DNA of 64,000 nt from Candidatus Heimdallarchaeota archaeon (GTDB lineage: Archaea; Asgardarchaeota; Heimdallarchaeia; Heimdallarchaeales; Heimdallarchaeaceae): contig JAAFKI010000112.1 of assembly GCA_021399345.1 (NCBI GenBank), positions 109,753 to 173,752 on the forward strand, given 5' to 3'. Each line of letters opens with the position of its first letter. Position 1 is the first letter of the stretch. Position numbers and translations under genes: made by a program. The notes beneath the pieces were generated by a model. It ran no database searches and had not been told where the DNA came from. It saw nothing but the letters and a program-made list of their open reading frames with translations. Positions 1 through 3,946 of the stretch are shown one piece after another.

Positions 1-167
1 TTTATTTCACCTCTTTTGTGATCAGCTTCTTTGTACTCCACCAGAAGAGGATGGGTACTTTCCTGACCGTGCACAACTGTTTGTGGTGAAGTTGACTAAT
101 CTTGCCATGCGTCCTCTACCTAGTTATGGGGAGATGTAGGAAAGAGAAGCATGGGTGTTTTTTTTTC
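1..167. other. Left-edge non-coding stretch with T-run
   Basis: I see no open reading frame here. Read on the minus strand, positions 7-13 give GAGGTGA, a good ribosome binding site for a gene that would start beyond the left edge. Read on the plus strand there are short helices: AGAGGA 46-51 with TCCTCT 112-117, and CACAA 72-76 with TTGTG 81-85. The stretch ends in nine T residues at 158-166, which would suit an archaeal terminator of an RNA entering from the left. The two readings are alternatives. Confidence 0.3.
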
Positions 168-173
168 TTCGGG

Positions 174-181
174 TTTATATA
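174..181 (+). promoter_or_regulatory. TATA box for the structured RNA
   Basis: TTTATATA lies about 25-30 bp before the first helices of the structured RNA, the usual archaeal TATA-to-start distance, so transcription would begin near 200-206. The same bases read on the minus strand also look like a TATA box and could serve the gene beyond the left edge. Confidence 0.45.
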
Positions 182-203
182 TGAAAGTACACATAGAAAG
201 CTA

Positions 204-585
204 GATAGTGTGCGCTTCAGCACCTGCCTGTTTCGCAACTACACAAGTGGTTGTCTCTCAGTGAACTTACAATGAAACGGGGAGCCTAGCTAGCTCTATG
301 CTGAAGGTCCACTTACTATTCCAGAACAAAGTCTGGATGACTTCCCCTCAACGCACGTGAGGGGACCCACTTAAACGACGGTTAGAAAGCCTCTGGCAAG
401 TTTAACCAAGTTTCATAACGTGCGTGATACAGGTATCAGGGGAGCAAGATGAAAAACTTGCAGCACACGAACATTCATCTTAGCTCAGATCCTGATCCTT
501 AGCAGACGAAGTGTCTGCGGTAGTGAGTGTTTCAGCAAGAAACAATCAGCGCGATAGAGATCAACCAGATAGAAGGTTGATCAAG
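204..585 (+). ncRNA. Candidate structured RNA with pseudoknot
   Basis: No ORF fits this GC-richer stretch, but it folds densely. A long helix 215-222/299-306 (CTTCAGCA/TGCTGAAG) encloses hairpins 236-242/247-253 and 282-285/293-296. Further hairpins are 320-325/332-337, 344-350/358-364 (CCCCTCA/TGAGGGG), 371-376/400-405, 502-507/513-518, 529-533/539-543 and 559-566/575-582. An extended hairpin pairs 435-440 with 491-496 and 442-453 with 474-486 around one bulged A. The whole 7-nt loop ACGCACG (351-357) is complementary to CGTGCGT at 419-425, giving a pseudoknot. A G-U pair in helix 236-253 would become a C-A mismatch on the other strand, which favours + transcription, as does the TATA box upstream. 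I cannot match it to RNase P, SRP RNA or another known class; ends are estimates. Confidence 0.55.
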
Positions 586-600
586 ATATAATCATAAATG

Positions 601-1265: not shown

Positions 1266-1706
1266 CTACCCTATTCGATCAGTGGAATCAGCTTTAGATT
1301 TTGCCTTAGATGAGGAAGAGGCTACAATCTCTGAAACCTCAGGATAAGTGGTAACTGTAACTGCTTCAACTTCTTGATCTGTCTCTACTCCAATCTTATG
1401 AAGTGCCTTAACACGTTTATCTGTTAAGAAGAAGTCAGCCATTTTAATCCAACTAGTAGTCACCAAAACAGGGAAACTATTAAAATCTAATGCACAATTA
1501 TGGGTATCTTCAGTTAAATCTTGTATTGTATCAATAGCTCCACATTTCAAACATATTCTTAAGCGAGAAGATTTTTTGTATAAATCATTCATTGTTTCCT
1601 GATACAAATGTAAGCCTTGATTAAGCGGAGCATCCCATAAGTCAATAGCAAAGTGTTTTGCTCGGGATCGAATTACTTTCTTTTTTGCATTAGACATATC
1701 TGCCAT
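1266..1706 (-). CDS. Zinc-ribbon protein R1, putative regulator
   Basis: I place the start at the ATG at 1706 (146 aa) rather than the in-frame ATG at 1718. GAGG lies six bases before it, and the 110 N-terminal residues then align with the paralogue at 3548-3946 with no gap, about 50% identical. Both have C52-x2-C55 and H69-x-C71, a small zinc-binding knuckle inside the conserved block SSRLRICLKCGAID, plus a conserved FFLTD...KAL.K.GVE segment. The C-terminal 35 residues are Ser/Lys-rich and unlike the paralogue. I know no named family. Its own upstream region carries the 21-bp palindrome also found twice at the S1 promoter, which suggests an autoregulated DNA-binding protein. A role in RNA or protein binding cannot be excluded. 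Confidence 0.75.
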   Translation of the reverse strand: MADMSNAKKKVIRSRAKHFAIDLWDAPLNQGLHLYQETMNDLYKKSSRLRICLKCGAIDTIQDLTEDTHNCALDFNSFPVLVTTSWIKMADFFLTDKRVKALHKIGVETDQEVEAVTVTTYPEVSEIVASSSSKAKSKADSTDRIG

Positions 1707-1716
1707 TTGTATCCTC

Positions 1717-1737
1717 ATGTATTATTAAGTCCTACAT
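1717..1737. promoter_or_regulatory. Operator copy in front of R1
   Basis: The minus strand reads ATGTAGGACTT...TACAT over 21 bp. Its first 11 bases are identical to the site at 1012-1032 and its spacing is the same. It lies between a TATA-like CTTTAAA (about 1738-1745) and the ribosome binding site of R1, so it would overlap the transcription start. This supports autoregulation of R1. Confidence 0.55.
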
Positions 1738-3547: not shown

Positions 3548-3946
3548 TTGCCTGTAATTAAAAATGTTGAAAAAACACAAATCAAATCCAGAGCCCGTAG
3601 ATATGTGCAAGATTTAGCTGATGCTCCCTTAAGTACCGGTTTAGAATTATATAGTGAAACTATCTCAAAGCTCCATGATCGTTCTTCCCGATTGCGAATT
3701 TGTTTGAAGTGTGGAGCTATTGATAAAAAAGAGAGTCTTACTAACAGCAACCATCATTGTGCATCTGGCATTGATAAACTCCCTGTTATCATTCTTACAA
3801 ACTGGGTCATTTTGAAAAATTTCTTTCTCACTGACGAATACACTAAAGCGTTGCAAAAGCTTGGCGTTGAACCAATTCTGAAGGAGTCTAGTCCAAGCAA
3901 AAATACAAAACAAAAGGAAGAATCACTTGTTGAAAAAACAAAGTAA
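3548..3946 (+). CDS. Zinc-ribbon protein R2, putative regulator
   Basis: The gene encodes 132 residues from a TTG start fixed by GGAGG eight bases upstream. It is a gapless paralogue of R1 over 110 residues, about 55 identities by eye, with the same C52-x2-C55...H69-x-C71 zinc knuckle and the same FFLTD segment; the Lys/Ser/Glu-rich tail is unrelated. It is transcribed away from the S2/S3 genes across a region with four to five copies of the TGCnGTAA half site. By position it is the natural binder of that site, as R1 is of the ATGT...ACAT site. I infer paired autoregulators that diverged in DNA specificity. No named family is recognised. Confidence 0.75.
   Translation: MPVIKNVEKTQIKSRARRYVQDLADAPLSTGLELYSETISKLHDRSSRLRICLKCGAIDKKESLTNSNHHCASGIDKLPVIILTNWVILKNFFLTDEYTKALQKLGVEPILKESSPSKNTKQKEESLVEKTK

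What the first reader, a model, noticed from the sequence alone, without database searches (positions are those of the whole stretch)
204..585. Unassigned structured RNA with loop-downstream pseudoknot
Seen: at least ten perfect or near-perfect helices in 380 nt without an ORF. The complete 7-nt loop at 351-357 is complementary to 419-425, and a 12-bp helix with one bulge lies at 442-486. A TATA box sits about 27 bp upstream. I cannot fit it to RNase P, SRP or tmRNA. Inference: a new or very divergent structural RNA, perhaps belonging to the neighbouring small-gene element.
Basis: partly seen in the sequence, partly recalled or inferred. Interest (0 to 1): 0.75.

Follow-up and report, generated by a model that had tools for sequence, protein, structure and literature searches.

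The report
Stand-alone transposon guide RNA, Heimdallarchaeota
The reported RNA is really two things run together: a small mobile DNA element that carries its own promoter and an RNA built like the guide RNA of a transposon nuclease (TnpB), and a separately structured stretch of archaeal DNA into which that element jumped.

Summary
The structured sequence is real, but 204-585 is a chimera. Window 71-425 is a protein-less insertion: relatives hold the empty site, with window 1-70 joined directly to 426 onwards. Its ends match IS607-type transposons (TnpA serine recombinase plus a 644-aa TnpB) of Heimdallarchaeota. Behind a TATA box lies a ~229-nt RNA. Its 3' part is an 85-nt core that in full elements overlaps the end of tnpB (up to 28 places per genome); its 5' domain was found only in TnpB-less copies. 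The reported pairing 351-357/419-425 joins a hairpin loop to the last seven bases of the element; it covaries and has the layout of the pseudoknot shown elsewhere to be required by an IS607 TnpB. Best reading: a stand-alone omega (right-end) RNA whose guide is the flank from 426 on, served in trans by TnpB; the host has three intact tnpB genes and, in its incomplete assembly, no intact tnpA. It matches no Rfam family and was found in one archaeal family only. The helices at 442-583 belong to a second structured element of the host locus (19-70 + 426-586), split by the insertion. Transcription, TnpB binding and cleavage are inferred, not shown.

The parts
66..70 (+). Target border ACCGT to the left of the element (candidate TAM; GT is also the last dinucleotide of the element, the likely crossover)
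   Evidence: A, C, C/A/T, G, T in 28 left junctions: A 28, C 28, C 25, G 27, T 28 (the search model included these columns, so some bias); present in the empty site of G014
71..425 (+). Non-autonomous IS607-type element (whole)
   Evidence: Empty sites L011/L180, L031, L032; copies with unrelated flanks
71..109 (+). Left end, shared with TnpA/TnpB-bearing elements
   Evidence: Left-end profile matches upstream of tnpA/tnpB
174..181 (+). TATA box (TTTATATA) inside conserved CGGGTTTATATATGAAAGT
   Evidence: Conserved in families A and B and upstream of tnpB in L054
197..341 (+). 5' domain of the RNA; helices 202-210/310-318, 214-223/298-307, 227-234/274-281, 235-242/247-254, 282-285/293-296 (RNA start about 200-206, not mapped)
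   Evidence: Double changes 14 against 6.4 shuffled in family A (whole 229-nt RNA); counterpart helices in family B
342..425 (+). 3' core (omega/right-end RNA scaffold and transposon right end); hairpin 344-350/358-364, helices 373-376/410-413, 380-386/401-407, 389-391/395-397
   Evidence: 82 distinct sequences, 32 double-change cells against 6.6 shuffled, 0/500; in full elements overlaps the end of tnpB
351..357 (+). Pseudoknot, 5' side (entire hairpin loop)
   Evidence: Pairs with 419-425; 93.9% of cells paired, 4 of 7 pairs with double changes
419..425 (+). Pseudoknot, 3' side (last seven bases of the element)
   Evidence: As above
426..445 (+). Predicted guide (host flank next to the right end; length inferred from known TnpB systems)
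   Evidence: Inference by analogy with IS607 right-end RNAs (PMC10711439); in G014 the same bases follow ACCGT directly
19..70 (.). Host structured region, first piece (not part of the element)
   Evidence: Model R3 match 19-92, aligned through ~70
426..586 (.).
   Evidence: Model R3 match 383-586, true from 426 on; contiguous with 19-70 in empty sites; 49 double-change cells against 14.2 shuffled

Best explanation
Window 71-425 is a miniature, protein-less member of an IS607-type transposon group of Heimdallarchaeota. It keeps the left end, a promoter and the right end, which is also the scaffold of an omega (right-end) RNA, and carries a structured 5' domain where tnpB would be. Predicted working: (1) the TATA box at 174-181 starts a scaffold RNA of about 229 nt that reads across the right end into the flank (inferred). 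(2) Loop 351-357 pairs with the last seven bases of the element and sets the next bases as guide (pairing supported by covariation; role by analogy). (3) A TnpB made by another element in the cell binds it in trans (inferred; three intact tnpB genes in this genome). (4) The complex recognises the empty target, ACCGT followed by the flank sequence, on an uninserted chromosome copy; cutting or binding there would favour keeping the element (inferred). Movement would need a TnpA in trans.
For: Precise empty sites in relatives. Same right end on elements with IS607 TnpA and TnpB, tnpB ending inside the core. Shared left end and ACCGT border. Covariation of core and pseudoknot and of the full RNA in two families. 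G-U far commoner than A-C on + (108:18, 56:9, 48:15). Conserved TATA box. Intact tnpB genes in the genome. Published IS607 right-end RNA with required pseudoknot (PMC10711439).
Against: No transcript seen. The TnpB group has His for the third RuvC Asp, so cutting is uncertain. The 5' domain was not found in full elements, so its role in TnpB binding is unknown. Several copies break a pseudoknot pair (outermost pair unpaired in 25 of 80).
Confidence: 0.85

Rival explanations
1. A passive miniature transposon: the ends are conserved only because TnpA needs them as DNA, and the RNA folding is a relic of the parent's omega RNA.
For: Copies are mobile and multi-copy; no expression data.
Against: Conserved promoter and 5' domain lie away from the ends; compensatory changes in the 5' domain of two families; G-U tolerated far more than A-C.
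Confidence: 0.12
2. Same RNA, but the TnpB does not cut: with His at RuvC-III it acts as an RNA-guided DNA binder (regulator or site protector), comparable in outcome to nuclease-dead TnpB-like repressors.
For: His in place of the third Asp in all full-length copies; tnpB intact but tnpA decayed in the host.
Against: First Asp and Glu are kept; rearranged RuvC motifs may still cut (PMC10278001); intact TnpA/TnpB pairs exist in other genomes.
Confidence: 0.25
3. One new structural RNA of about 380 nt, 204-585, as first proposed.
For: Good fold of the whole stretch.
Against: The two halves recur separately and the join at 425/426 is an insertion border.
Confidence: 0.02
4. Single-stranded DNA end structure of an IS200/IS605-type element.
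For: A hairpin whose loop pairs with the element's last bases resembles end recognition in that family (own knowledge).
Against: The partner transposase is an IS607 serine recombinase; wobble bias points to RNA.
Confidence: 0.02

Closest known systems
IS607 TnpB right-end RNA (reRNA) of ISXfa1 (PMC10711439)
   Same: RNA at the right end reaching past it; hairpin loop pseudoknotted to the scaffold's 3' end; matching dinucleotide at both ends; IS607 TnpA
   Different: Here no tnpB in the element, own promoter, an extra 5' domain, GT rather than GG at the ends, unrelated sequence
RAGATH-18-derived RNAs of IS607 TnpBs (PMC11061315)
   Same: Structured RNA with pseudoknots next to IS607 TnpB; 36% of RAGATH-18 RNAs are not next to a TnpB
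   Different: No Rfam match here; TnpB about 644 against about 390 aa; border ACCGT against AGGAG/GAGGG; archaeal
TnpB omega RNA processed from tnpB mRNA (PMC10278001)
   Same: In full elements the core overlaps the 3' end of tnpB, so it could be made in that way
   Different: The window copy has no tnpB and would be made from its own promoter
Non-autonomous insertion sequences (MITEs)
   Same: Short, multi-copy, no coding capacity, ends of a full element
   Different: Carries a conserved promoter and a covarying guide-type RNA

Membership tests
IS607-family element (non-autonomous) | Ends shared with elements that encode IS607 TnpA (MerR HTH + serine recombinase) | tested here: met
IS607-family element (non-autonomous) | Insertion between matching dinucleotides, no longer target duplication | tested here: met
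   GT at 69-70 and 424-425; one GT in the G014 empty site
IS607-family element (non-autonomous) | Encodes its own TnpA | tested here: not met
   No ORF; hence filed as non-autonomous
TnpB omega / right-end RNA | Scaffold ends at the transposon right end, next to a variable flank | tested here: met
   45+ distinct flanks
TnpB omega / right-end RNA | Same scaffold at the 3' end of tnpB in full elements | tested here: met
TnpB omega / right-end RNA | Pseudoknot between a hairpin loop and the scaffold's 3' end | tested here: met
TnpB omega / right-end RNA | Transcribed, bound by TnpB, directs cleavage next to a TAM | not testable with these tools
   No expression or biochemical data
TnpB family (protein of the full elements) | RuvC D-E-D triad and C-terminal Zn ribbon | tested here: inconclusive
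   D and E present, third Asp replaced by His; Zn-ribbon match below Pfam cut-off (24.2 against 26.3 bits); NCBIfam guided_TnpB 19-24 bits against cut-off 100; PDB chain 8hr5 E = 6e-8
RAGATH-18 (Rfam) | Match to the covariance model | tested here: not met
   No match at gathering score or at E <= 10
Fanzor / pro-Fanzor | DPG at RuvC-I and glutamate six residues before the first CxxC | tested here: not met
   DIN at RuvC-I and glutamate about 59 residues before the Cys
RNase P RNA, SRP RNA, tmRNA | Match to the family model | tested here: not met
   RNase P and SRP-like hits elsewhere

The most novel reading that the evidence does not exclude
In Heimdallarchaeota, a few TnpB proteins with a His-substituted RuvC site, in this host no longer tied to a working TnpA, are programmed in trans by many stand-alone guide RNA genes spread by miniature transposons. 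These RNAs have their own promoters and a dedicated 5' domain that full elements lack: a dispersed, insertion-written RNA-guided DNA-targeting or regulatory network.
Probability: 0.25. Interest if true: 0.85.

Novelty: new variant of a known kind. Interest (0 to 1): 0.62.

Why it matters
TnpB guide RNAs are usually described as coming from the tnpB transcript or right beside it. Here two families of tnpB-less elements carry the guide scaffold behind a conserved promoter, with a covarying 5' domain that full elements lack, in many copies per genome of archaea close to eukaryotes. This predicts TnpB working in trans on many guides, and supplies natural guide/target pairs and pseudoknot variants for testing. 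The His-substituted RuvC site raises the question whether this lineage cuts at all.

Tried and rejected
RNase P and SRP: found elsewhere in the genome. tRNA/tmRNA: none in the window. Rfam: nothing. IS200/IS605 single-stranded ends: the partner transposase is a serine recombinase. 5' domain inside TnpB-bearing elements: not found by nhmmer at full sensitivity. Wider distribution: the core and full-RNA models match no genome of the class outside one family (58 genomes; stricter filters may lose weak matches). TnpB structure: AlphaFold mean pLDDT 47, not used. Small zinc-ribbon-like proteins near the insertion as Rpr2/Rpp21 (RNase P protein): no support, no Pfam match above cut-off. Published stand-alone TnpB guide RNAs on miniature elements: no clear precedent in the searches made, but the library lacks many subscription papers.

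Full report
CHECK. The letters are as reported. Loop 351-357 ACGCACG is the exact complement of 419-425 CGTGCGT; 442-486 is a 12-bp helix with one bulge; TTTATATA is at 174-181. The 204-585 stretch folds better than shuffles, z = -5.0 on + and -3.7 on -. There is no long ORF and no Rfam match. RNase P RNA and a near-threshold archaeal SRP match lie elsewhere in the genome.

TWO UNITS. A DNA search of the own genome and 22 relatives broke the stretch at 425/426. The left part recurs up to 425 with unrelated flanks, its last 85 nt in up to 28 places per genome. The right part recurs without it. In G014, G019 and G020, window 1-71 is followed directly by 425 onwards. G014 reads TTTCCTGACCGT|GATACAGGTATCAGGGG, the exact uninterrupted site. 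The element is therefore 71-425, give or take the shared GT.

WHAT THE ELEMENT IS. Larger elements with the same right end carry, on the same strand, TnpA (MerR + resolvase; NCBIfam IS607 transposase, 167-173 bits against a cut-off of 110) and a TnpB of about 644 aa whose frame ends inside the 85-nt core. They share the left-end motif and the ACCGT border. The TnpB relatives found by name are from Candidatus Heimdallarchaeota. The window copy has neither gene. It has a left end, a variable stretch, a conserved TATA box and an RNA-like region. A second, diverged family (B) has the same plan and a recognisable 5' motif, GGTTCGCA-hairpin-GTCCCTCAGTTA...GAACC, with many copies in some genomes.

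STRUCTURE. Core: 82 distinct sequences, 32 double-change cells in 11 pairs against 6.6 in shuffles, none of 500 reaching it. Pseudoknot cells are 93.9% paired, with GC to AU in 11 sequences at one position. That alignment was fitted to a model without the pseudoknot, so the pseudoknot count does not lean on it. Full RNA: family A 14 against 6.4, family B 33 against 12.3, both 0/500. The tool warns that relatedness can inflate the shuffle tests; sliding the partners by 1-3 columns, which keeps relatedness, gives lower values throughout. On + the non-Watson-Crick cells are G-U 108 and A-C 18 (core), 56 and 9 (A), 48 and 15 (B); the structures were derived on +, so this leans somewhat to that side.

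HOW IT LIKELY WORKS. Shown in the literature: the right-end RNA of an IS607 TnpB reaches past the transposon end, and a pseudoknot from an apical loop is required; breaking it lowered activity about 10^4-fold and repairing it restored 100-fold (PMC10711439). Inferred here: the window RNA is transcribed from its own promoter, uses 426 onwards as guide, and is loaded on TnpB made elsewhere. The host genome has three intact tnpB genes but only decayed tnpA pieces; its assembly is 88.6% complete. The TnpB group keeps the RuvC Asp and Glu but has His for the third Asp. PMC10278001 notes that rearranged RuvC motifs may still be active. Whether it cuts is open.

THE OTHER HALF. The host stretch 19-70 + 426-586 is itself structured: joined z = -4.25; with distant copies 49 double-change cells in 25 pairs against 14.2 in shuffles (that alignment was fitted to the structure). 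It is found in 8 genomes of one genus by model and in 9 by the motif CAGCAAGAWACAAWCAGC with one mismatch (one of the 14 places, L219, lies in a coding frame and looks like chance). On the minus strand it lies just upstream of a small membrane-protein frame, so a leader RNA is possible; the strand is not settled.

NOVELTY. A new variant of a known kind. IS607 TnpB and its guide RNA are known. A tnpB-less, promoter-bearing guide RNA with its own 5' domain, in two families in Heimdallarchaeota, was not found in Rfam or in the papers searched. RAGATH-18 RNAs that are not next to a TnpB are a precedent for separation (PMC11061315).

Noticed in passing
window 19-70 + 426-586; L180, L031, L032, L179, L181, L199, L200, L202, L203, L204, L206, L218: A second, unannotated structured RNA or leader, about 200 nt, with the conserved motif TTTCAGCAAGAAACAATCAGC; two copies about 1.6 kb apart in G004 and G008; no Rfam match. 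On the minus strand it precedes small membrane-protein genes, so it may be a regulatory leader.
   Followed up: partly
window 1269-1718 (-), 3548-3943 (+); L182 2118-2591 (-); L220-L224: A paralogous family of small proteins with CxxCG and HxC motifs (A9), three to four copies per locus, beside the host RNA; no Pfam match above cut-off, not Rpr2 by profile comparison.
   Followed up: partly
G000 C89, C88, C4 (L085, L087, L086): All three TnpB genes of the host genome are intact while the tnpA next to each is broken or cut short.
   Followed up: partly
A3/A7, RuvC-III motif NTHxNAA: Conserved Asp to His change at the third RuvC catalytic position in the whole TnpB group.
   Followed up: partly
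L050 4235-4984: An element with an intact TnpA directly followed by the 85-nt core and no TnpB.
   Followed up: no
L017 1651-1746, L034 1638-1734, L066 311-408, L067 1402-1499: Diverged cores carry an extra small hairpin between the first hairpin and the AAAC/GTTT helix.
   Followed up: no
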